Positions 3,559 through 13,802 of a stretch of DNA of 64,000 nucleotides are shown here, one piece after another. The notes under the pieces are model-generated. The model ran no database searches. It was not told the DNA's origin and saw only the letters and a list, made by a program, of their open reading frames with translations. The stretch spans positions 248,001-312,000 of the forward strand of contig NZ_VKKZ01000022.1 of NCBI RefSeq assembly GCF_008271745.1, read 5' to 3'. Position 1 is the first letter of the stretch, and every line of letters starts with the position of its first letter. Both the position numbers and the translations under genes were made by a program. The DNA is from Rufibacter glacialis. Lineage in GTDB: Bacteria; Bacteroidota; Bacteroidia; Cytophagales; Hymenobacteraceae.

Positions 3559-5997
3559 CTATCGCCAATCCACCTTCGGGAAGCGGGCTTTCAGGGAGCC
3601 TCGCATCAAGCGGTACTCCTCTGCCCAGAAGTAATGCAGGCTGTTGACTACTTTCAAGGGCTTTAAATCAGGAGAGAGCAAGTGCAAGGCCACTCCCACA
3701 TCACCGCCGTCTACGGTAGGGTTGTTTTCCCAGTCAAAAATATCTTGTAACCTAACCTCCATGATGGGGGCCTGGGCGTTGTCTGGGTAATAAAGCTCCA
3801 AGGCATGGCCGTCGGGTAAGGTCAAGGTAGCGGGGGCCAGTTCTTCCAGGCGTTGGCGTTGCTCACGGGTAAGCATGTTCTGGAGCAGGGGCAGCAAGTC
3901 AATGTCCAGCAGGTCCTGGCCAATCTGCACGTCTTCCAGGTGATACGCCAGCCACTCCTGGCAGGTCATGAGCAGGGTAGGGGTGCTGATATCCGGGAAG
4001 CCTTCGGTGGGGTGCCATTTCCGAAGGCAGAGCACGCGGTTCTGGAACTGCTTTACCTGGTCAGAGAAATTAAGCCAATCTTCGCCTTCACGTTTGATGG
4101 TCTCGCAGATGGCGGGTATTAAGAAGCGTTCGTCGGGTTCGGGCAGGGGTTTGCTTTGGAGCACGATGGAACCGATGCGCATGTCACGGGAGGCGGTGAG
4201 TTCGCCTTCTTCGGGATCCCAGTTGACCACGTCTTTCTGCTTTACCAGCGGGGCCAGGTCTTTGGGGTTGAGCGGTGAGGCAAGGAAAATACGGCCCGGT
4301 CCGTCGCCGCCGGCGTGCAGGTGGGCAATGGCCAGCCAAGGGTCATGGGCAAGGTCATCGCGGTGGCCGGCAGAGGCGTATTTGCCGTTAGCGAGCTGGA
4401 ACTGGGCGTTGTTCCCCGGGCGGGCGTAGGCAATGCGCTCGGGGTAGCAGTTGGCCAGCAGCACACCCGTTTCATAGGGGTCTACGGCCGTATTCTCGGG
4501 TTCAAGGGAGAACATCCGGCGGTAAGAGGCGGCAATCTTGTCAATCTTGGAAAAGCGCTTCTGGTGCAGCCCTTCCTTGCGGGTGCGGCGCAGGGCCTCA
4601 ATGCGCAGGTTCAGGTCAATACCGGCCTCGCGGGGCAACGGATCACGCTCTTCCAGCAGGGCGGCAATATCGGTGGCCAACGCCAGATGGTCGCTTTCCT
4701 GGGCGGCCAGCAGCATGTGGGCCAGACGCGGGTGCGTGGGCAGGGCGTGCATCTTACGGCCATGGGCGGTGATGCGTCCGTTCTCCAGGGCGTTGAGCTG
4801 GTGCAGGGTTTCCTGGGCGTATAGCAGGGCGGCTTTGGGCGGCGGGGTTAGCCAGGTGAGCGCCCTGATGTCTGAGATGCCCCAGGCGGCCATGTCCAGT
4901 ACCAGCGGGGCCAAGTCGGCTTCCTGGATCTCAGGGGTGCGGTGCGGGGCCAGGCGTTCGTGCAGGGCCTCGGTCCAGAGGCGGTAACAGGTGCCGGGAC
5001 CTAACCGGCCCGCCCGACCAGCGCGTTGGTCGGCGGCGTCCTTGGAAATGCGCACCGTCTCCAGCCTGCTGAGGCCGGTGGCGGGGTCAAAGCGTTGGGT
5101 TTTGGCGAAGCCAGTGTCAATGACCACGGTCACGCCTTCAATGGTGAGGCTGGTCTCGGCAATGGAAGTAGCTAGCACCACTTTGCGCTTGCCGTTGCGG
5201 TCGGGCATGATGGCGGCGTACTGCTTGCCGGGGGGCAACATGCCGTACAGCGGATGGATAGCCACTTCGCGCAGGCCGCGCCGGAGCAGGGCTTCCACTT
5301 TCCGGATGTCCTGCTCGCCGGGCAGAAACACCAGCACATCGCCTTGCTGGTCTTGCAGGGCTTTCCGGATGGCGCGGTCGGTCATCTCATGCAGCAATTG
5401 GGCATCAGTTTCGCCGGCGTACTGCACTGTAATGGGGTATTGCCGGCCTTGGCTCTCTACGGCGGGGGCGTTGAGCAGGCGGGTGAGCTGGGGCATGTTG
5501 AGGGTAGCGCTCATGACCAGAATGCGCAGGTCGGGGCGCTGGTGGGCCTGGGCTTCGCGGCAGAGGGCCATGGCCACGTCTGCGTGGATGCTGCGCTCAT
5601 GGAACTCGTCAAAGATGACCAGCGCCACGCCTTTGAGCGCATTGTCTGAGTGCAGCATGCGGGTGAGGATGCCCTCGGTGACCACCTCCAGGCGGGTCTT
5701 CTCTGAGATGCGGTTCTCAAACCGGATGCGGTAGCCCACGGTCTGGCCCACCTCCTCGCCCAGCAGCTGCGCCAGCCGTTCGGCAATGGTGCGGGCGGCC
5801 AGCCGGCGGGGTTCCAGCATGATGATTTTCTGCCCCTTCAACCAGGCCTCGTCTAAAAGGGCCAACGGCAACAGGGTGCTCTTGCCCGCCCCCGGAGGCG
5901 CGTTCACAATGAGCGTGTTCTGGGCAGCCAGGTGTTCACGCACCGCCGGGATAATCTCCCGAACGGGTAAGTCTATGGTAAAAGGATCGAAAGGCAA
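3559..5997 (-). CDS. hrpB: ATP-dependent helicase HrpB
   Basis: DEAH-box superfamily 2 helicase of the HrpB family, full length at 812 residues. Walker A is APPGAGKST (about 33-41) and the DEAH-type motif II is DEFH (130-133). SAT follows (motif III, VMSATLN), and motif VI is QRAGRAGRLGPG with arginine fingers. The C-terminal part contains the HA2-like and HrpB-specific domains. The cellular role of HrpB is poorly defined; RNA or nucleic-acid remodelling is usual for the family. The 5' end is notable because a degenerate copy of its first ~72 codons lies 2.3 kb away, on the other side of the Fic gene. Confidence 0.93.
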   Translation of the reverse strand: MPFDPFTIDLPVREIIPAVREHLAAQNTLIVNAPPGAGKSTLLPLALLDEAWLKGQKIIMLEPRRLAARTIAERLAQLLGEEVGQTVGYRIRFENRISEKTRLEVVTEGILTRMLHSDNALKGVALVIFDEFHERSIHADVAMALCREAQAHQRPDLRILVMSATLNMPQLTRLLNAPAVESQGRQYPITVQYAGETDAQLLHEMTDRAIRKALQDQQGDVLVFLPGEQDIRKVEALLRRGLREVAIHPLYGMLPPGKQYAAIMPDRNGKRKVVLATSIAETSLTIEGVTVVIDTGFAKTQRFDPATGLSRLETVRISKDAADQRAGRAGRLGPGTCYRLWTEALHERLAPHRTPEIQEADLAPLVLDMAAWGISDIRALTWLTPPPKAALLYAQETLHQLNALENGRITAHGRKMHALPTHPRLAHMLLAAQESDHLALATDIAALLEERDPLPREAGIDLNLRIEALRRTRKEGLHQKRFSKIDKIAASYRRMFSLEPENTAVDPYETGVLLANCYPERIAYARPGNNAQFQLANGKYASAGHRDDLAHDPWLAIAHLHAGGDGPGRIFLASPLNPKDLAPLVKQKDVVNWDPEEGELTASRDMRIGSIVLQSKPLPEPDERFLIPAICETIKREGEDWLNFSDQVKQFQNRVLCLRKWHPTEGFPDISTPTLLMTCQEWLAYHLEDVQIGQDLLDIDLLPLLQNMLTREQRQRLEELAPATLTLPDGHALELYYPDNAQAPIMEVRLQDIFDWENNPTVDGGDVGVALHLLSPDLKPLKVVNSLHYFWAEEYRLMRGSLKARFPKVDWR

Positions 5998-6416: not shown

Positions 6417-7958
6417 CTACTCCCTCTCAAAAAAGAGCCTGAACTGCGCTTCTATGGCTTCTACTTCTTCTGGCGTGAGGGCCGCGAATTCCTTCGTTCT
6501 GGCGAGGGCTGACAAAAGGCCATCGCCCTGCCATAGGAACTGGATAAGTAAGGCCACGGTTTTGTCCGGCATCTGGAAACGGTCATCCAGCCAGGCTTTC
6601 ATACGGTCATATTTCTGCAGATACGCTACTTCTTCCGGAATAATGTGGCTGATGGTGTAGGCCACGCATTGGAACAGGAATTCCGCCTGCGGGGTGGCGT
6701 CAAAATACTGGTAATAATCTTGGGTATCATTCAAGACCTCCACGTTGTGGTCTGCGGTGGTGCGCCATTCTATAAAGTCCAGCAGGGGGTGGGAGTAGGC
6801 TTCCAGCACCTGGCGGTAATCTGTGATGTGTTCCAGAATGGCAGCCGACACCGGGAAGATGATGCCTTGCGGGGTAAAGCGCATAGCCGCCAGTAAATGG
6901 TGGATCAGGTAGCGGTGCAGCCGGCCATTGCCATCTACCAACGGGTGAAGGAAGACAAACCCGAAGGCAATCTGGGCAGCCGCCAGCACCGGATGGAACT
7001 GCGCCTTTTGCAGGAGCTGGGCCGCAGACAGCAAGCCCTCCATCAAAGGTTCCAGGTCTTGCCAGCGGGCCGAGATATGGTCTGGGATTGGCTCCCCGTT
7101 GCTTCGGTCATGTTCCCCCACAAACCCACCGGCCGTGCGGTAGCCCAGGGCGGTGAAACGGCTGCTGCCAATGACTTGTTGCTGCAGCCGGAGCAGTTCG
7201 GCTTTGCTTAACGGCCTGGCCCCGGCCTGCCCAATGGCCTGTCCCCAGCGTACGGCCCGGCTTTGGGTAGGGTGCTCGCCTTCTATGCTGAAAGAGGCTT
7301 TGGAGTCTTTCAAGAGCAGAAACGCCGAGGTGCGGCTCAGCACATCTTTGTGCACCCCGCGCAGCACCTGGCCTATTTTCTCATCCAGCTTTTCCTGCAG
7401 GAAGTTGTCCAGGGCAGGGGTTTTACAGATCAGCGGACAAAAGGCGACGGAGCCGGGCAGGTTGTTCAGGATGCGGTGCCGCCCCGACCGCAAGCCCGTC
7501 TGTATCCCGTACTGTAGTTTCTCATCCAGCAAGGGCACGTAATTCTTGAAGGTCAGGTCTGGAAGCGGCAACTGCTCCTGTAGGAGCCACTCATACAGAA
7601 ACCAGACCTTGCGCATGTACTGCCCCGTGTATTCCTGTTGAATAAGCGCCACCACCTCGGTGAGCGGCAGGTGCTGGAACAGCTTTTTGAAAAACAGCAG
7701 GTGAACGCCTTCATACTTCAGGGCGAAGGTAAGGTGCCCGGCCAAGGTGTCTGCCGGCGCATAGGAAGGCGGAAACACCAGCCACTCCGGTTGCTGGTAC
7801 CGGCGGTTCTTCTTGCTGATCAGCGCCAATTGCCGAGGCAAAGGCAGGGCCAAGGTAAAATGTGCCATCAAGGCCCCATACCCCACCAGGTTACCCGCCT
7901 CGGGTGCAGTGCGGCCGTGAAAAACAAGTATTTCCTGTGAGATTTGGGTATCAGGCAT
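6417..7958 (-). CDS. Fic family protein (probable AMPylase, class II)
   Basis: Fic-domain protein that would transfer AMP (or another nucleotide moiety) to a target hydroxyl. The active-site motif HPLVDGNGRLHR lies about two thirds into the protein; it matches HPFx(D/E)GNGRxxR except for Leu in place of Phe. About 110 residues upstream, SFSIEGEHPT fits the inhibitory (S/T)xxxE(G/N) helix, so the enzyme is of the class II auto-inhibited type. A long N-terminal region (first ~200 residues) and a C-terminal helical tail flank the Fic core. The start is placed at MPDTQISQ; a start eight codons upstream is possible. The gene lies between intact hrpB and a broken hrpB 5' copy, suggesting acquisition. 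No antitoxin gene is visible beside it. The target is unknown. Confidence 0.85.
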   Translation of the reverse strand: MPDTQISQEILVFHGRTAPEAGNLVGYGALMAHFTLALPLPRQLALISKKNRRYQQPEWLVFPPSYAPADTLAGHLTFALKYEGVHLLFFKKLFQHLPLTEVVALIQQEYTGQYMRKVWFLYEWLLQEQLPLPDLTFKNYVPLLDEKLQYGIQTGLRSGRHRILNNLPGSVAFCPLICKTPALDNFLQEKLDEKIGQVLRGVHKDVLSRTSAFLLLKDSKASFSIEGEHPTQSRAVRWGQAIGQAGARPLSKAELLRLQQQVIGSSRFTALGYRTAGGFVGEHDRSNGEPIPDHISARWQDLEPLMEGLLSAAQLLQKAQFHPVLAAAQIAFGFVFLHPLVDGNGRLHRYLIHHLLAAMRFTPQGIIFPVSAAILEHITDYRQVLEAYSHPLLDFIEWRTTADHNVEVLNDTQDYYQYFDATPQAEFLFQCVAYTISHIIPEEVAYLQKYDRMKAWLDDRFQMPDKTVALLIQFLWQGDGLLSALARTKEFAALTPEEVEAIEAQFRLFFERE

Positions 7959-8069
7959 GAGGTAGCATGAAAAGCCGGTCATGCGAAGGTAGTGAAATTG
8001 GGTATAGGTTGTGAAAAGTAGATAAAATTGGAAGCTTGTTGAGGAATTGGGGTATTGGTTTGTTTGATT

Positions 8070-8286
8070 AAATGGTGCGAGCCGCCAGCCGACGGGGTTC
8101 CAGCAGGATGATTTTCTGCCCCTTGAGCCAGGCCTCGTCTAAGAGAGCCAGCGGCAACAGGGTACTCTTGCCCGCCCCCGGAGGCGCTTTCACAATGAGC
8201 GTGTTCTGGGCGGCTAGGTGTTAACGGATGGAAGGGATATCTCCCGAACGGGCAGGTCTATGGTAAATGGGTTGAAAGGCAAGGGG
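8070..8286 (-). pseudogene. Degenerate copy of the hrpB 5' end
   Basis: These bases align along their whole length with 5785-6001, the first ~72 codons of hrpB and its start, in the same orientation. Many substitutions are present, an in-frame TAA replaces a sense codon near the start (the gttaac at about 8220), and a short indel breaks the frame. The rest of hrpB is absent. It marks the junction between the Fic gene and the AT-rich island and is best read as the scar of a duplication or single-crossover insertion. Confidence 0.85.
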
Positions 8287-8541
8287 AAAGGGTTGTTATT
8301 TAGAAAAGTATATAAGGTGTTTAAAGTACTATACTATAAATTTATATCAAATCTAGTAGAATAAAGTTTTGTTCATTAGAATCACTGTACGATATTGAGT
8401 GAAAATTTAAAGGCAGCTAGTTTTATATTTTAGATGTCTGGCATGTGGGCCAGTTAAAATATAACTTAGGTATTATAAAGAAAATAAGTAATAAGTAAAA
8501 CCCAAACAGTAATTGTTGAATTTTTTTAAATAATAGATTAT
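8287..8541 (+). promoter_or_regulatory. AT-rich leader of the island operon
   Basis: This 255-base AT-rich region precedes the helicase gene and must hold the operon promoter. Several T-tracts and TTG triplets are present, but no single -33/-7 pair stands out. No small coding frame is convincing. Confidence 0.35.
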
Positions 8542-9702
8542 ATGGCATTTGTTTTTAATACAATTTCAGAAACTGAAATACTCAATTCTCCAGGTGGTAG
8601 AATGATGATGGATGCAATAAATTATAGTGGGGAAAAACATTTAATTGTAACTGGGTGTCCTGGAAGTGGCAAGACTACAGTTACCTTAATGAGAGCAGCT
8701 AAATTATCAAGAGAGAAGAAAAATGTATTAGTGCTTACTTATCAAAATCTATTGAAAATTAGCTTAGTGAATATTGCTACTCCAGATATGAAGTGGAGGA
8801 TAACTGGATTTTACGAATGGTATGTAAAGAATACAAGTTCATACCTTGAGCACAGCGACACGTGCGAAAAAATGATTGAGAAGCTCAAGAATGTTGGCGA
8901 ATTTGATGAAATATTAATAGATGAAGGCCAAGATTTTGAGAAGAGGATATTGAAAACTATTGGTAATAAAACGAAAAGAATAAATGTAGGCGCTGATAAC
9001 GCTCAAAAGTTACATAGTAAAGGAACTAATGCTCAAGATATAATTTCAATTGTTGAAGATTTTGGAGGTGTTCAAAGAGTTAATTTGCAATATAATTATA
9101 GGAATAACTTTGAAACTTATAATTTTGCAAGGTTCTTTTTGCCATTAAATGAGAGGGCAAACAATTTGGTTACTTTGGATAGGATGCCAAAAGGGAGAGG
9201 TATAAAGCCTACTGTTTTTATGGCTAAAAATGAGCAGGAAAGGCATAAAATACTTAAAACAAGGCTGAATGACGCTGGAGATGTTAATATTGCTATTTTA
9301 GTGTACTCAATTGAAGAAGTAGAATATTACTATAAATTAATTCCAACTCTTGGAGATTTCAAATGTTCTAAATATTACAATGAAATGCCTAAGGCTGAAA
9401 AGAGGAATGTTGAATTATATATGGAGAATATAATAGTTACAACATACAAGTCAGCAAAAGGTCTAGAGTTTCAGGTAGTCATTATGCCCAATATGGAAAC
9501 GGCTATGGATGAAATATATAAAACACCAGAACATTATTATGTTGGATGTACCAGAGCGAAAGAGCAATTATTCTTAATTGCAAATATTCACAAGCCAAAA
9601 TATTTGAATAATTTCGACAGCTCAACATATGAATTTGTTGAAGACGCTGGTTTGGATAATAGTAATTTCTTTAATGATGAAGATGATGATTTGCCTTTTT
9701 AA
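8542..9702 (+). CDS. Compact SF1 (UvrD-like) helicase with SSB-like C-terminal tail
   Basis: Superfamily 1 helicase/ATPase of only 386 residues. Motifs in order: Walker A GCPGSGKTT (38-46), a DExQ box IDEGQDFE (~126-133), motif III-like VGADNAQ (~149-155), motif IV QYNYRN (183-188), motif V TYKSAKGLEF (301-310) and motif VI YYVGCTRAKEQLFL (~332-345). The long insertions of UvrD/Rep are missing, so it is a minimal core. The last residues are acidic and end DDDLPF, the exact form of the C-terminal peptide by which bacterial SSB recruits its partners. That ending is not expected on a helicase. It is the first gene of the island operon, 10 bases before the SAP-domain gene. It may act on forks or SSB-bound DNA; this is an inference. 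Confidence 0.85.
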   Translation: MAFVFNTISETEILNSPGGRMMMDAINYSGEKHLIVTGCPGSGKTTVTLMRAAKLSREKKNVLVLTYQNLLKISLVNIATPDMKWRITGFYEWYVKNTSSYLEHSDTCEKMIEKLKNVGEFDEILIDEGQDFEKRILKTIGNKTKRINVGADNAQKLHSKGTNAQDIISIVEDFGGVQRVNLQYNYRNNFETYNFARFFLPLNERANNLVTLDRMPKGRGIKPTVFMAKNEQERHKILKTRLNDAGDVNIAILVYSIEEVEYYYKLIPTLGDFKCSKYYNEMPKAEKRNVELYMENIIVTTYKSAKGLEFQVVIMPNMETAMDEIYKTPEHYYVGCTRAKEQLFLIANIHKPKYLNNFDSSTYEFVEDAGLDNSNFFNDEDDDLPF

Positions 9703-9712
9703 CCAACAATAG

Positions 9713-11512
9713 ATGAAAATTAATAAATTAAAGGTTGAAGATTTAAGGGCTAAGTGCATATCCCTAGGCCTACCCTCTGACGGTAATAAGCGTGAGCTGT
9801 TAGGAAGATTAGAGGCACAGAGCGTAAGTCAGAACGAAGAATCGAGCTTATTTGGAACTAATGTTATAGAGGGCAGTAATAAAAAGAGCTCTATCATAGA
9901 AAGAAACTCTTTTTATATTCAAATGAATATTGGGAATCTACCCATCTATTTAAGTAAAGGAGTCTTATACCCTAACTGCTTCGAAGATAATGAGGTTTAT
10001 ATTAAGGAGAATAGGAAACAAGATAATTTAAGCTTATTTCCAAATTATCTTGTTTTATCAAAGCATGCAATTAATGATTTTGATGAAACACAAGTTTTAG
10101 TGGAGGTTGTCTTGAATAACCAAGAAAATAGTAGGCTTTTAGAGAATACTAATTTGTTTTTTTTGAGCCAGCCATTGCCAGTCTCTAGAATTAGGTATGT
10201 GCATTTTTTTAATAATTCTGTAAGGAATTCATTTTTAGCTTCATTGAATTCTTTTCCTGACTCATATTTGCCAGAAAGTGTTACTTCTATTATTTCTGAT
10301 AAACTAGATTCTATTTCATTATTAGATGTGCAATATGGAAATGAAGTATCTGAAAGAGATATTGAGCAATGGAAGGGCGTTTTATTAAAATTTGATAAAA
10401 TTCTAGGGTCTATAGCATTTTTGAAAAATGCTTCTTTGCTATATTCTAATATAACAAATGAATTTAATGAATATTCACCAGGCTATTTCGATGTCTTAAG
10501 TCTAATAAATACATATGAAAGCGAGAGTAAAAAAATAAACGTATTTTTTAAATGGATTTTATTTCCTTCTGAAATTGAAGTTGAGGGTAATATTAATAGG
10601 TTTATTTTTAAAAGTATCATAGAGGGGATTTATGCTAATTTTGTATTTGATATTGATTGGGCAGTAGCTCTGATTGATGAATGTGTTAAATTGGAAAAAA
10701 CAATAGAAAAGAGAGATGAGTTAAAGAAAATTGCTATTCTGTTTAATCAATATAAAAAGTTTAGTATTGACTATAAATCATTAATAGCAAATAAAGCAAT
10801 TCAATCATCTCTGCCAGTTACGATTTTAGTATTCTTAATAAAGTTTTCTAATAAATCTTTAGGGCATACTGATAAGCAAGCTGTTAGAAATTATTTTAGT
10901 GGTGTTGACAATTCAATAGAAAAAGTTAATGCAGAATTTATTTTAGCTGTACTTGGGTTATATTATGGGTATAGGAATTTAGTTAAGACTGATGTTTTAA
11001 ATTTTAGAAATGAATTCTATAAATCTTTAGGCAAAAACAGAGAAAATATTAAATTCCAGCTTAATTCATATTTTGATAGGTTTGCTATAGAAAGTGTGTT
11101 TGAATTTTGTAAGAAAGGATGCGCAAGGTTAAATAATAGTTTTGATTTTTTGGTATTCTCTGATAAAGCAAAATTGGAAATGGATAACCATATTAAATCG
11201 GATGTTTTGAATTTTAATAATGATGGTAAATATGTTGATAAGTCGGTAATTAAGTTTAACAAGTATTTGCCTATTTACAAACACCTTGACCCATTTGAAT
11301 CTGTTTGTAGCTTAATTGATGGGTTTTATCCTAAAAATATTTCGCAACAGTATCATTTGTTTGCTTTTGTGTTCAATAATTTTCCAGAGCTTATAAATAT
11401 TGATAAAGATAAATTGATTGAAAAATTGCGTGATTCAAGTAAGTTTAATTTAGATGAATTAGTTGCGGTTGCAGAAGTTGATAAAAAAATAAAAAATATA
11501 AGAAATAAATAA
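9713..11512 (+). CDS. SAP-domain protein of unknown function
   Basis: A 599-residue protein I do not recognise beyond its N-terminus. Residues ~3-36 (LKVEDLRAKCISLGLPSDG, then KRELLGRLEAQ) fit the SAP motif, a small helix-extended-helix DNA-binding fold. The remaining ~550 residues look like a mix of a beta-rich segment (about 60-190) and a long helical region with no obvious catalytic motif, signal peptide or membrane span. It sits between the helicase and the methyltransferase with only 10- and 5-base gaps, so it is probably a subunit or DNA-targeting component of the same system. The composition is as AT-rich as its neighbours. Confidence 0.7.
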   Translation: MKINKLKVEDLRAKCISLGLPSDGNKRELLGRLEAQSVSQNEESSLFGTNVIEGSNKKSSIIERNSFYIQMNIGNLPIYLSKGVLYPNCFEDNEVYIKENRKQDNLSLFPNYLVLSKHAINDFDETQVLVEVVLNNQENSRLLENTNLFFLSQPLPVSRIRYVHFFNNSVRNSFLASLNSFPDSYLPESVTSIISDKLDSISLLDVQYGNEVSERDIEQWKGVLLKFDKILGSIAFLKNASLLYSNITNEFNEYSPGYFDVLSLINTYESESKKINVFFKWILFPSEIEVEGNINRFIFKSIIEGIYANFVFDIDWAVALIDECVKLEKTIEKRDELKKIAILFNQYKKFSIDYKSLIANKAIQSSLPVTILVFLIKFSNKSLGHTDKQAVRNYFSGVDNSIEKVNAEFILAVLGLYYGYRNLVKTDVLNFRNEFYKSLGKNRENIKFQLNSYFDRFAIESVFEFCKKGCARLNNSFDFLVFSDKAKLEMDNHIKSDVLNFNNDGKYVDKSVIKFNKYLPIYKHLDPFESVCSLIDGFYPKNISQQYHLFAFVFNNFPELINIDKDKLIEKLRDSSKFNLDELVAVAEVDKKIKNIRNK

Positions 11513-11517
11513 GTTAA

Positions 11518-13035
11518 ATGAATATTGCTGAATTTGTATCTACAGTAAAGCGAATAGACACTGTCTACGAGTTTGAAAGATTTATTGATTCGAAGATTGT
11601 AAGTGTTAGATTGTATTATTATGGGTTAAAAAAAGTAGACCTTTTAGCGAGTGCTCATGAGTTTGAAGATTCGTTTTATGAGCTCAAGGATTGTGCCCTA
11701 TTTAAAGAGGTCTTGTTATCTAGAGAACCTTATTCTGAGCAAATAATTAATTTATTAGTTTTTTTTGCTACTATTTTTGAAAGAATTAACCCAAATCCAA
11801 TATTTGATATTGTCTCTAACTTGCCTGACTCTTCTATAAAGTTTAGATTATTAGCTCATATGTTAGCTTATGAGGAAATTGATAACGCAAAGACTCATTT
11901 CAGAATGAACTTCCTTCGAATTTTGGATTTACTAGCAAAGTCCCAATTCGATGGAGAAGAAGATTATACTCATGCTGTTGTAGTATTTTTAGTAAAAATG
12001 TATCAAAGGGCAGTAGTGAAACTGGCTGGTTATCATTTTTATGATGAAATAACTCATTTACAATCATTGTATATTAATGAAGATAATAAAAACAAGTACC
12101 CATTTCTTCTCCATCCACTAATTGAAAATGTAATTAGTGGTAATCTTGAAACCTTAGATGATTTAGTTGTTGATTCGAATAAATCAAAATTATATGTACC
12201 ATCTGATAGGATGTTAGGGATTTTTGATTTAGAAATTGTAAAACCAATAATTAATCATGTCGATACTGAAGGGTATCAAATGCCTTTAGGATATCCTAGT
12301 AGAGTGGTTAGAGAGCAAATATTAGAATTTGGCAAAGCAGATTTTACTATAGGTTTTAGAAATCTAACAGATGATGATAAAGTATTGCTTTATTGTTATT
12401 TTAATATGCGTAAGCATTTTTTCACCACTTTTTTTGTATTAGAAAGGATTTATGATTCGCTCCTTTCGCTTTTTACTAATGCCAATCTTGTACCTATTTT
12501 CATTGATATTGGTTGCGGACCTTTAACATCTGGTTTAGCTATATCAGATTTGCATTATCAGAAGTCTGGGGAATTATTGAAAACTAATTATATAGGAATT
12601 GATATTTCCCCTGCTATGTTAAGAAAAGCTCATGGCTTTTGGAATAGAGGAATTTTTGCCAAAGAAAGTAGAGCCTCTTTTTTTTGTAGTTGGAATCAAA
12701 TTTCAGATGATTTATTAGCAGATTATGTGGGTTTGCAAAACCCTATAATAATAAATGCGTCTTATCTTTTTGCAAGCAAATCCTTAGATGAAATTCAGTT
12801 AGCAAGGTTTATTAAAGGTGTTGCTAGGAGACATGAGCAAAGTAAATTATATTTTGTTTTTCAAAATCCAAATTCTTTGGAAAAAAATAATAAGTATTTA
12901 AGCTTTAAATCTCAATTTGAGTTTATAACGTATTTGAGTAATGTTGAACAAATAGATTATAAAACAAATCCATATAGTAGGAACGATGTTAGTGGTGAAG
13001 TTGTTTTTTTTGAAATTCTAGAACTTAAAAATTAG
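11518..13035 (+). CDS. SAM-dependent methyltransferase with long N-terminal region
   Basis: Class I (Rossmann) methyltransferase in the C-terminal third of a 505-residue protein. Motif I is IDIGCGPLTSG (about residues 328-338) and the acidic end of strand 2 is YIGIDISPAM (~360-370). A strand resembling motif IV is NPIIINASY. No NPPY/DPPY or Cys-PC motif is visible, so it is not an ordinary DNA adenine or C5-cytosine methylase, and the substrate cannot be told. The first ~320 residues are helical and unrecognised. It starts 5 bases after the SAP gene and ends 2 bases before the AlkB gene, so translation is probably coupled. Confidence 0.8.
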   Translation: MNIAEFVSTVKRIDTVYEFERFIDSKIVSVRLYYYGLKKVDLLASAHEFEDSFYELKDCALFKEVLLSREPYSEQIINLLVFFATIFERINPNPIFDIVSNLPDSSIKFRLLAHMLAYEEIDNAKTHFRMNFLRILDLLAKSQFDGEEDYTHAVVVFLVKMYQRAVVKLAGYHFYDEITHLQSLYINEDNKNKYPFLLHPLIENVISGNLETLDDLVVDSNKSKLYVPSDRMLGIFDLEIVKPIINHVDTEGYQMPLGYPSRVVREQILEFGKADFTIGFRNLTDDDKVLLYCYFNMRKHFFTTFFVLERIYDSLLSLFTNANLVPIFIDIGCGPLTSGLAISDLHYQKSGELLKTNYIGIDISPAMLRKAHGFWNRGIFAKESRASFFCSWNQISDDLLADYVGLQNPIIINASYLFASKSLDEIQLARFIKGVARRHEQSKLYFVFQNPNSLEKNNKYLSFKSQFEFITYLSNVEQIDYKTNPYSRNDVSGEVVFFEILELKN

Positions 13036-13037
13036 AA

Positions 13038-13664
13038 ATGATGGCGCAGTTGGATTTGTTTTCTTCAGAAGCTAAAATTCCAAAAAATAAATTTGATGCC
13101 CTAAATAAAGTTAAAGGGTTAGTGTACTGTGAAAACTATATATCATCAGAAGAGCATTTTAACCTACTTCATTTTATTGATAACCAAGATTGGTTAGGTG
13201 ATTTAAAAAGGAGAGTTCAGCATTATGGATATAAATACGATTATAAAAGCAGGAAGATTGATTACTCCATGTTTATTGGAGATCTTCCTGCATGGGCTTC
13301 CCATTTAGCACAAAGACTCTATAATGATGGATACATTAATTCTATTCCAGACCAAGTAATAGTAAATGAATATTTGCCTGGTCAAGGTATAGCTCATCAT
13401 ATTGATTGCGTTCCTTGCTTTGATGATACTATAATCTCATTGAGTTTAGGTTCACCTTGTATAATGGATATTTTATACAAGTTTGATAGAACTCTTAGAG
13501 TAGAAGTATTATTAGAACCAAGGAGCTTAATAGTTTTAAAGGGAGAGTCTCGATATAAATGGTTACATGGGATATCAGCCAGGAAAATAGATAATTTTAA
13601 TGGAATTAGTTTTAATAGAGAAAGAAGGGTTTCCCTTACCTTTAGAAAGGTAATTATTGAATAA
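13038..13664 (+). CDS. AlkB-type 2-oxoglutarate/Fe(II) dioxygenase with clamp-binding motif
   Basis: A 208-residue AlkB-superfamily dioxygenase. The iron triad is HHID (His121, Asp123) and His177 in YKWLHGI; the 2-oxoglutarate-binding Arg is in RRVSLTFR at the C-terminus. NEYLPGQGIAHHID and SLGSPCIMDI are typical of AlkB-like demethylases, and RRVQHYGYKYDY resembles the nucleotide-recognition region. Residues 4-8 are QLDLF, the consensus pentapeptide (QL[SD]LF) for docking on the DNA polymerase beta clamp. A second ATG three bases downstream is an equally possible start and keeps the motif. Last gene of the island operon; it would remove alkyl groups or oxidise bases in DNA (or RNA). Substrate unknown. 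Confidence 0.85.
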   Translation: MMAQLDLFSSEAKIPKNKFDALNKVKGLVYCENYISSEEHFNLLHFIDNQDWLGDLKRRVQHYGYKYDYKSRKIDYSMFIGDLPAWASHLAQRLYNDGYINSIPDQVIVNEYLPGQGIAHHIDCVPCFDDTIISLSLGSPCIMDILYKFDRTLRVEVLLEPRSLIVLKGESRYKWLHGISARKIDNFNGISFNRERRVSLTFRKVIIE

Positions 13665-13802
13665 CTGACAGAGAAGTAGTTGTTCTTTGTGTGAATAGAA
13701 TAATTGCAATTGATAATATTTGTTTCTTGTTTTTAGCCTGTTTTTATTTAAGAAAGTTAACATTAAGTTTTCTTAAATTTTTGGTGTATGTGGTGTAGGT
13801 TG

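What the first reader, a model, noticed from the sequence alone, without database searches (positions are those of the whole stretch)
8287..13800. AT-rich four-gene operon: helicase, SAP protein, methyltransferase, AlkB; candidate undescribed system
A single, sharply AT-rich plus-strand operon encodes a minimal SF1 helicase, an unrecognised protein with an N-terminal SAP DNA-binding motif, a methyltransferase with a large unknown N-terminal region and an AlkB dioxygenase. Gaps of 2-10 bases imply coordinated expression. I cannot match this combination to a named defence or modification system. A methyltransferase (adds alkyl groups) beside an AlkB (removes or oxidises them) with a helicase and a DNA binder could form a DNA modification-and-proofreading, alkylation-repair or anti-phage module.
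Basis: partly seen in the sequence, partly recalled or inferred. Interest (0 to 1): 0.9.

Follow-up and report, generated by a model that had tools for sequence, protein, structure and literature searches.

The report
Helicase, ADP-ribose-fold, methyltransferase, AlkB cassette
Four neighbouring genes in this bacterium form a small travelling gene set, found as a unit in related bacteria and sometimes beside known virus-defence genes, which probably handles single-stranded DNA by an unusual ADP-ribose and methyl chemistry that has yet to be tested.

Summary
The four-gene operon is real (8542-13664, gaps 10, 5 and 2 nt, 27-37% GC against 52% for the window) and is a conserved mobile cassette. 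I found 24 loci with its second protein, B, Bacteroidota where named. The helicase (A) is adjacent in 24 of 24; 18 of 24 also hold the methyltransferase (C) and AlkB (D), 16 in the same order. The SAP protein has a DarT-like ADP-ribosyltransferase fold followed by a glycohydrolase-like domain (Pfam 2CompART; 2CompARG in two relatives). Among solved structures the AlkB is closest to human ALKBH8. The helicase ends in DDDLPF, like the host SSB tip (PDDLPF); 11 of 24 homologues end alike. C's methyltransferase profile and D's subfamily are found together (18) or both missed (6), and pair without A and B elsewhere. The cassette sits behind type-4 BREX, DISARM or HerA genes in four genomes. I read it as an anti-invader module acting on ssDNA. 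Against simple ADP-ribosylation: DarT's catalytic Glu and the hydrolase's Asp motif appear lost. PADLOC has no matching system; my searches found no paper on the set. Function is untested.

The parts
8542..9702 (+). A: compact SF1 (UvrD/Viral_helicase1-like) helicase, 386 aa; Walker and other helicase motifs intact
   Evidence: the 16 motif positions I checked are identical in 17 compared cassettes except two substitutions, both in one Pedobacter protein
9673..9699 (+). SSB-like C-terminal tip of A (ends NDEDDDLPF)
   Evidence: 11 of 24 A proteins end in an acidic LPF tip; own SSB ends EEEPDDLPF
9713..11512 (+). B: SAP + DarT-like ART fold + ADP-ribose-glycohydrolase-like helical domain, 599 aa; hallmark protein
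   Evidence: SAP, 2CompART; no 2CompARG match in this protein itself; relatives L017 and L021 also hit 2CompARG; model and Foldseek
9719..9814 (+). SAP DNA-binding motif of B (residues 3-34)
   Evidence: PF02037 4.5e-7
9911..10243 (+). ART-like domain of B (residues 67-177)
   Evidence: PF22546 9.1e-13; top structural hits DarT
10325..11137 (+). Glycohydrolase-like domain of B (about residues 205-475; limits set by me)
   Evidence: PF22545 in relatives L017 and L021; hhalign E 0.0037 to ADP_ribosyl_GH at one motif; weak ARH3 structural hit, E 2.0
11518..13035 (+). C: helical N-terminal domain (about 1-275) + class I methyltransferase domain, 505 aa
   Evidence: separate N-terminal and methyltransferase profiles in relatives
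13038..13664 (+). D: ALKBH8-like 2OG-Fe(II) dioxygenase (AlkB superfamily), 208 aa
   Evidence: H121, D123, H177, R197, R203 identical in 17 of 17
8071..8240 (-). Duplicate of the 5' end of hrpB (89% identical to 5785-5953), about 300 nt upstream of the cassette
6417..7982 (-). Neighbouring Fic-domain gene matching PADLOC candidate PDC-S24
   Evidence: 1.2e-192

Best explanation
It is a horizontally moving anti-invader cassette that works on single-stranded DNA. Shown by comparison: A and B are an inseparable core in the loci found, C's N-terminal domain usually joins it, and C's methyltransferase domain plus D form a coupled pair that can be swapped or dropped. Shown by sequence: A is an intact SF1 motor, often with a tail like the SSB tip; B has a SAP motif and a DarT-like fold; D has an intact ALKBH8-like active site. 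Inferred: A works where SSB coats ssDNA, at replication or repair intermediates of an invader, and its tail competes for or recruits SSB partners. B holds DNA, and its DarT-like and hydrolase-like pockets bind or transfer ADP-ribose on that ssDNA. The C/D pair methylates and hydroxylates a base or its adduct, either to complete a blocking lesion or to spare self DNA. The step I am least sure of is whether B catalyses transfer or only reads ADP-ribose or NAD.
For: Conservation: A next to B in 24 of 24 loci; all four families in 18 of 24. Distance matrices of A, B and C correlate at 0.946-0.969; with D at 0.76-0.82 (17 cassettes, 0 of 5000 permutations as high). B and C reading frames overlap in 11 of 17 as called. 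Chemistry: PF22546 in 10 of 10 B proteins scanned; 8 of the 9 best PDB hits are DarT or DarTG entries, one with ssDNA (E 1.3e-3 to 0.4). By strict profile C's methyltransferase domain and the D subfamily are both present (18) or both missed (6) in 24 of 24 loci, and they are paired without A/B in L068, L070, L092 and L093. ssDNA link: SSB-like tip in 11 of 24 A proteins. A second SF1 helicase with the same tip lies 5 nt from a true DarT gene in L080. Context: same-strand genes of type-4 BREX (G039, G127), DISARM (G167) and a HerA-methylase set (G077) directly upstream. The cassette lies in a variable spot between hrpB and TMEM175.
Against: DarT's catalytic Glu, placed by a short local match (E 0.019; the Glu is one residue outside the aligned block, and the fuller alignment does not reach it), falls on a hydrophobic residue in 17 of 17 B proteins. 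A possible substitute, E131, is Glu in 14 of 17. The glycohydrolase DxDT motif aligns to residues without conserved Asp. The window's own B misses PF22545, which only 2 of 10 B proteins scanned reach. Pfam SAP is found in only 2 of those 10, and Rho_N in one more. No Foldseek hit to B has E below 1e-3. The SSB-like tip is missing from 13 of 24 A proteins. In L017 and L018 the AlkB belongs to another subfamily, and in L022 a divergent methyltransferase remains without AlkB. No nuclease or obvious killing effector is in the cassette. In the loci whose flanks I scanned, a directly adjoining known system was seen in four genomes only. The flank scan had no control set. I know of no phage experiment.
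Confidence: 0.42

Rival explanations
1. Adduct repair: a mobile repair cassette that recognises and clears ADP-ribosyl or alkyl adducts put on DNA by competitors or phages. The helicase opens the DNA, B reads ADP-ribosylated DNA, and D oxidises the lesion.
For: AlkB enzymes are best known for repair (established knowledge). PMC9503650 predicts host systems that counter ADP-ribosylation (passages).
Against: D is closer to ALKBH8 than to E. coli AlkB. A methyltransferase has no clear role in repair. The patchy spread and BREX/DISARM neighbours fit defence better. The hydrolase Asp motif expected of an ADP-ribose-removing enzyme is not seen.
Confidence: 0.2
2. Self-marking: the cassette makes a hypermodified base, for example a methylated and hydroxylated pyrimidine or an ADP-ribose-derived base, that a partner restriction system reads as self.
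For: Genes directly behind type-4 BREX, DISARM and HerA-methylase sets. The methyltransferase-dioxygenase pairing recalls the two activities joined in ALKBH8 (established knowledge; D's likeness). C's methyltransferase keeps motif I.
Against: The two BREX operons have PAPS reductase and cysteine desulfurase genes of their own, so the cassette does not replace a missing modification gene there. In most of the loci listed I identified no restriction partner, though flanks were only partly scanned. C's listed fold hits are small-molecule, RNA and protein methyltransferases.
Confidence: 0.2
3. RNA modification or repair: the C/D pair acts on tRNA wobble uridine as ALKBH8 does, and B acts on RNA like the tRNA 2'-phosphotransferase fold.
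For: ALKBH8 is the closest solved relative of D (2.3e-33, next 2.1e-14). KptA/Tpt1 is the fifth fold hit for B. MTase-D pairs occur outside the cassette.
Against: SAP motif and SSB-like helicase tail point to DNA. DarT outranks KptA.
Confidence: 0.12

Closest known systems
DarT/DarTG (DNA ADP-ribosylating toxin-antitoxin)
   Same: DarT-like fold of B's ART domain, best PDB hits including the ssDNA complex; likely ssDNA setting
   Different: No macrodomain or NADAR match among A-D and the three neighbours scanned; a helical glycohydrolase-like domain is in the same chain; catalytic Glu apparently not conserved; helicase, methyltransferase and AlkB added
Pfam 2CompART/2CompARG (PF22546/PF22545)
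   Same: B carries PF22546; relatives L017 and L021 carry both
   Different: This is a domain label. A text search for it gave 25 papers; the titles of the 20 listed look unrelated and I opened none. What its authors said of any operon is unknown to me
Human ALKBH8
   Same: D is closest to it among solved structures. From established knowledge ALKBH8 also joins a dioxygenase to a methyltransferase
   Different: Separate genes here; C's methyltransferase domain is not shown to be ALKBH8-like; D has no RRM match
Type-4 BREX and DISARM
   Same: Same-strand neighbours in G039 and G127 (type-4 BREX-like) and G167 (DISARM-like)
   Different: A-D include none of their defining genes, and most cassettes were found without them
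SSB-sensing defences (Nhi, Hachiman, retron Eco8, Septu)
   Same: Also tied to SSB, per PMC12904381 (passages)
   Different: Those are described there as sensing phage SSB and nicking or cutting DNA; here a helicase carries an SSB-like tip and no nuclease was found among A-D

Membership tests
DarTG | DarT fold | tested here: met
   Foldseek 7omv E 1.3e-3, prob 1.00; DarT or DarTG entries fill 8 of the top 9; no PF14487 match by sequence
DarTG | Catalytic Glu before the last strand | tested here: not met
   corresponding position hydrophobic in 17 of 17; placed by a short local alignment extended by one residue
DarTG | Adjacent macrodomain (DarG) or NADAR antitoxin | tested here: not met
   no such Pfam match among the 7 proteins (A-D and three neighbours)
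ADP-ribosylglycohydrolase (DraG/ARH) | Metal-binding Asp motifs | tested here: not met
   DxDT motif aligned to residues without conserved Asp (E 0.0037); the other metal residues could not be mapped
AlkB superfamily dioxygenase | HxD...H iron site and 2OG-binding Arg | tested here: met
   H121, D123, H177, R197, R203 in 17 of 17; roles of the residues from established knowledge
E. coli-type AlkB repair equivalog | NCBIfam curated score for AlkB | tested here: not met
   39.2 bits against cut-off 267
Class I SAM methyltransferase | Motif I (DxGCG) | tested here: met
   near-invariant D330, G332, C333, G334; fold hits
BREX / DISARM | PglZ, BrxC/BrxL or DrmA/DrmB in the cassette | tested here: not met
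   none among A-D; such genes adjoin relatives in 3 genomes
Any PADLOC 2.0 system | Models for the component proteins | tested here: not met
   B and D no hit at E up to 1; C matches only C3a159; A matches helicase models of several systems (best C3a187, 2.4e-21)
DefenseFinder systems | Match to a system model | not testable with these tools
   models not available
Anti-phage system | Protects cells from phage | not testable with these tools
   needs experiment

The most novel reading that the evidence does not exclude
A new kind of nucleic-acid immune system: an SSB-tip helicase brings a DNA-anchored, DarT-fold protein to invader ssDNA, where NAD-derived ADP-ribose and a coupled methyltransferase/ALKBH8-like dioxygenase build or read a compound base modification not yet known. 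The same helicase-plus-ART logic arose at least twice (L080).
Probability: 0.18. Interest if true: 0.92.

Novelty: new variant of a known kind. Interest (0 to 1): 0.7.

Why it matters
If right, it joins two chemistries that I do not know to work together, ADP-ribose on DNA and ALKBH8-type methyl/hydroxyl tailoring, behind one helicase. It predicts a measurable DNA (or RNA) product in culturable Bacteroidota. The SSB-like helicase tail gives a testable idea for how defence proteins could enter replication and repair sites. The coupled presence of methyltransferase domain and AlkB shows which parts are core and which are exchangeable.

Tried and rejected
A single-protein scan of genome contigs with B found no relative; an alignment of B was needed (17 loci). 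B gave no tblastn match at E up to 0.01 in plasmids or phages, and a viral-contig pattern scan with an alignment gave none, so it is not an obvious phage gene, though distant copies could be missed. The idea that the cassette replaces the BREX methylase was dropped: the BREX-like loci are of type 4, with PAPS reductase and cysteine desulfurase genes. That L016's 210-aa gene is C's N-terminal domain is unproven (hhalign E 0.13). That L055's helicase in the C slot carries C's N-terminal domain is unproven (no profile hit). A Bacteroidota promoter pattern (recalled consensus) and sigma-70/terminator scans gave nothing above chance. Unlinked passenger genes: rejected by 24 of 24 A-B adjacency. Literature: ten searches listed no paper that I recognised as describing the set; only listings and passages were seen. 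Term look-ups found no AlkB or 2OGFe in PMC9503650, no AlkB or ADP-ribos in PMC12458937, and none of AlkB, ADP-ribos, SAP domain or 2OGFe in PMC10853773 and PMC12839542 (other passages). The 2020 J Bacteriol paper that I recall as a possible source of the 2Comp names is not held, so prior description cannot be excluded.
Full report
OBSERVATION. Four plus-strand ORFs lie at 8542-9702 (A), 9713-11512 (B), 11518-13035 (C) and 13038-13664 (D), with gaps of 10, 5 and 2 nt. The stretch is 27-37% GC and the window averages 52%. Pfam: A SF1 helicase; B SAP (residues 3-34, 4.5e-7) and 2CompART, an ADP-ribosyltransferase-type domain (67-177, 9.1e-13); C a weak methyltransferase; D 2OG-Fe(II) oxygenase (3.8e-21). 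PADLOC matches C's methyltransferase part (C3a159, 4.5e-20) and A with helicase models of several systems (best C3a187, 2.4e-21); B and D have no hit.

CONSERVATION. Protein or profile searches with B found it in 8 of 204 genomes of the family, 3 of 395 of a phylum draw and 4 of 345 of a class draw; each count includes the window's own genome, and the draws overlap. That is 12 distinct genomes. Within the genus (16 genomes) two have a match: the window's genome and G143. A scan of 84,980 species genomes with a B alignment gave 17 loci, named as Pedobacter, Hymenobacter, Algoriphagus, Solirubrum, Chryseobacterium, Sphingobacterium and Flavobacterium, three MAGs with a Bacteroidota-lineage name, and one MAG (L055) named only 'bacterium'. 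Five of the 17 are the same contigs as genomes already found, judged by equal contig lengths. Together there are 24 distinct loci (the second copy in G691 not counted).

GENE ORDER. A is next to B in 24 of 24. All four profile families are present in 18 of 24. In 16 of these D follows C; in two Pedobacter loci (L050, L052) D lies divergently upstream of A. The six others are: G039/L041 (C lacks its methyltransferase domain and no D was found), L055 (a UvrD helicase in the C slot), G520/L022 (C's N-terminal profile, another methyltransferase, and DUF1848 in the D slot), G167/L016 (A and B only by profile), and G152/L017 and G143/L018 (an AlkB of another subfamily first, then A, B and a 492-aa protein that is a methyltransferase by Pfam in L017 and aligns with it in L018). 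B and C reading frames overlap in 11 of 17 compared cassettes as called, three of them by 53 nt with the first start codon.

CORE AND COUPLED PAIR. Across 17 complete, non-redundant cassettes (of the 18; near-identical L049 was dropped) pairwise distances correlate at 0.960 (A-B), 0.946 (A-C), 0.969 (B-C), but 0.761, 0.818 and 0.822 for D with A, B and C; none of 5000 permutations reached any of these. Shared host ancestry adds to such correlations. By profile, C's methyltransferase domain and the D subfamily (E below 1e-40) are both present (18) or both missed (6) in 24 of 24 loci. Read loosely the match is less perfect: L017 and L018 carry distant versions of both, and L022 a divergent methyltransferase without AlkB. 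The same pair occurs without A and B in G791 (L068), in G645 (L070, D frameshifted) and on two Picosynechococcus plasmids, one beside type III-B CRISPR genes and one near a reverse transcriptase and an Abi gene. D also occurs without the methyltransferase profile beside it (L069, L094, L095 and viral contigs L097-L103). In a class draw 84 of 340 genomes have some AlkB match but only 7 of 340 have the D subfamily at E below 1e-40, four of them with B.

WHAT B IS. An AlphaFold model of B (mean pLDDT 79.9, pTM 0.75) has Thermus DarT as its top four PDB matches and DarT or DarTG entries as eight of the top nine (E 1.3e-3 to 0.4), one of them with ssDNA; KptA is fifth; SAP domains match with high probability but poor E, and ARH3 weakly (E 2.0). 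A viral structure search gave no hit below 1e-3. Of 10 B proteins scanned with Pfam, 10 hit 2CompART; 2 (L017, L021) also hit 2CompARG right after it; 2 (window, L013) hit SAP and L017 hits Rho_N. So the plan SAP-ART-ARG is assembled from several members, and the window's own B does not itself reach 2CompARG. Catalysis is doubtful. The DarT catalytic Glu (role from established knowledge) lies one residue outside a short local alignment (E 0.019); the corresponding B position is hydrophobic in 17 of 17. With more DarT sequences the local match (E 0.015) starts later and the global alignment fails. E131 in an earlier strand is Glu in 14 of 17; N75 and Y79 are conserved in 16 of 17 and D104 in 17 of 17. 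The glycohydrolase DxDT motif aligns to residues lacking conserved Asp (E 0.0037; global alignment uninformative). A binding or reading role is therefore open.

WHAT A, C AND D ARE. A keeps its helicase motifs and in the window ends in NDEDDDLPF. The host SSB, found by search, ends in EEEPDDLPF. Of 24 A proteins 11 end in an acidic LPF tip. Of 589 ORFs of at least 150 aa drawn from all loci held then (duplicate loci included; the host SSB itself had been dropped by the overlap filter), 20 end in LPF or IPF: 19 are A, and the 20th is a UvrD helicase 5 nt from a true DarT gene (PF14487, 7.2e-17) in L080. E. coli SSB binds RecO through its last nine residues (abstract start of PMC7913777 in a search listing). 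C is a helical N-terminal domain, with no match specific to it among the 50 listed, plus a generic class I methyltransferase fold. D's best solved relative is human ALKBH8 (2.3e-33), then ALKBH6 (2.1e-14); E. coli AlkB is 4e-8 at best. Its iron and 2OG residues are identical in 17 of 17.

CONTEXT. In G039 and G127 the cassette directly follows, on the same strand (33 and 42 nt), a type-4 BREX-like operon. PglZ, BrxL, DndA/SspA-like and PAPS-reductase genes were matched in both. The BrxC/SspC-like gene matched at 7.7e-7 in G039 and only 0.008 in G127, and DUF4007/SspB in G039; its counterpart in G127 was not scanned. The type-4 definition comes from passages of PMC12839542. In G167 A starts 2 nt after DrmB in a DrmA-DrmB-A-B row followed by a 210-aa gene, an AspBHI-like nuclease and MzaB/Z1/MzaD genes. 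In G077 it follows a DNA methylase, a HerA-like gene and an unknown gene, and a Dsr2-like gene comes after it. L021 has an HD-CE/HATPase gene upstream and MksE downstream. Of 60 further flank proteins that I chose from 11 loci and the window, PADLOC at 1e-15 matched 34 models (25 shown), such as CapP, RmrA, type IV REase, Lamassu, Avs and a DRT reverse transcriptase, each in one or two members; there was no control set. In the window the cassette lies beyond a Fic gene (PDC-S24) and a 170-bp duplicate of the hrpB 5' end, between hrpB and TMEM175. Of five same-genus stretches fetched, two (G142, G138) have hrpB and TMEM175 about 2.4 and 2.9 kb apart without Fic between them, and neither genome has B. 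G140 has an hrpB 5' duplicate and Fic but no TMEM175 in the stretch; G144 and G132 showed no TMEM175 or Fic in theirs.

MECHANISM. My best reading is an anti-invader cassette for ssDNA, as given in Best explanation, confidence 0.42. Steps shown: gene set, order, coupled pair, folds, intact or apparently lost motifs, neighbours. Steps inferred: target, activity of B, order of events, role of the tail, defence itself. Repair of adducts, self-marking and RNA modification remain live rivals.

NOVELTY. The domains are named in Pfam, so this is not unknown territory. The four-gene set matched no PADLOC system and my ten literature searches did not turn it up, but the held library lacks many subscription papers and I could not consult DefenseFinder. 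I call it a new variant of a known kind (DarT-fold nucleic-acid systems), without filing it as DarTG, because two of its defining features were tested and not met.

Noticed in passing
L080:1441-3488 (-): A UvrD helicase (at least 453 aa) ending EEEPDDLPF lies 5 nt from a true DarT gene: a separate helicase-plus-DNA-ADP-ribosyltransferase pair with an SSB-like tip.
   Followed up: partly
L011:1424-6158 (+), an IMG/VR contig: Methyltransferase, A-like helicase, and a 935-aa protein holding a D-like AlkB domain; its N-terminal part has weak collinear matches to B's ART and ARG motifs (hhalign E 0.3 and 0.04, not significant). Possibly a divergent fused version.
   Followed up: partly
window 5785-5953 and 8071-8240: Direct copies (89%) of the hrpB 5' end flank the Fic gene; G140 also has a second copy of the hrpB 5' end. 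This looks like an integration hotspot at the start of hrpB.
   Followed up: partly
window 6417-7982 (-): Fic-domain protein matching PADLOC defence candidate PDC-S24 at 1.2e-192, next to the cassette.
   Followed up: no
L039:12311-13646: A Pedobacter cassette with two D genes, one downstream of C and one convergent; another contig of the same strain holds a second, distant cassette (L052).
   Followed up: no
L092:7067-8591 and L093:7067-8591: Methyltransferase-AlkB pairs on Picosynechococcus plasmids, one beside type III-B CRISPR genes and one near reverse-transcriptase and Abi genes.
   Followed up: partly
L022:4950-7746 (-): DUF1848 protein in the place of AlkB next to a divergent C.
   Followed up: no
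L097-L103: D-like AlkB genes in seven viral contigs, three of them over 400 kb, with no A, B or C profile match beside them. A passage of PMC7824862 notes AlkB-like enzymes in a few jumbo phages.
   Followed up: partly
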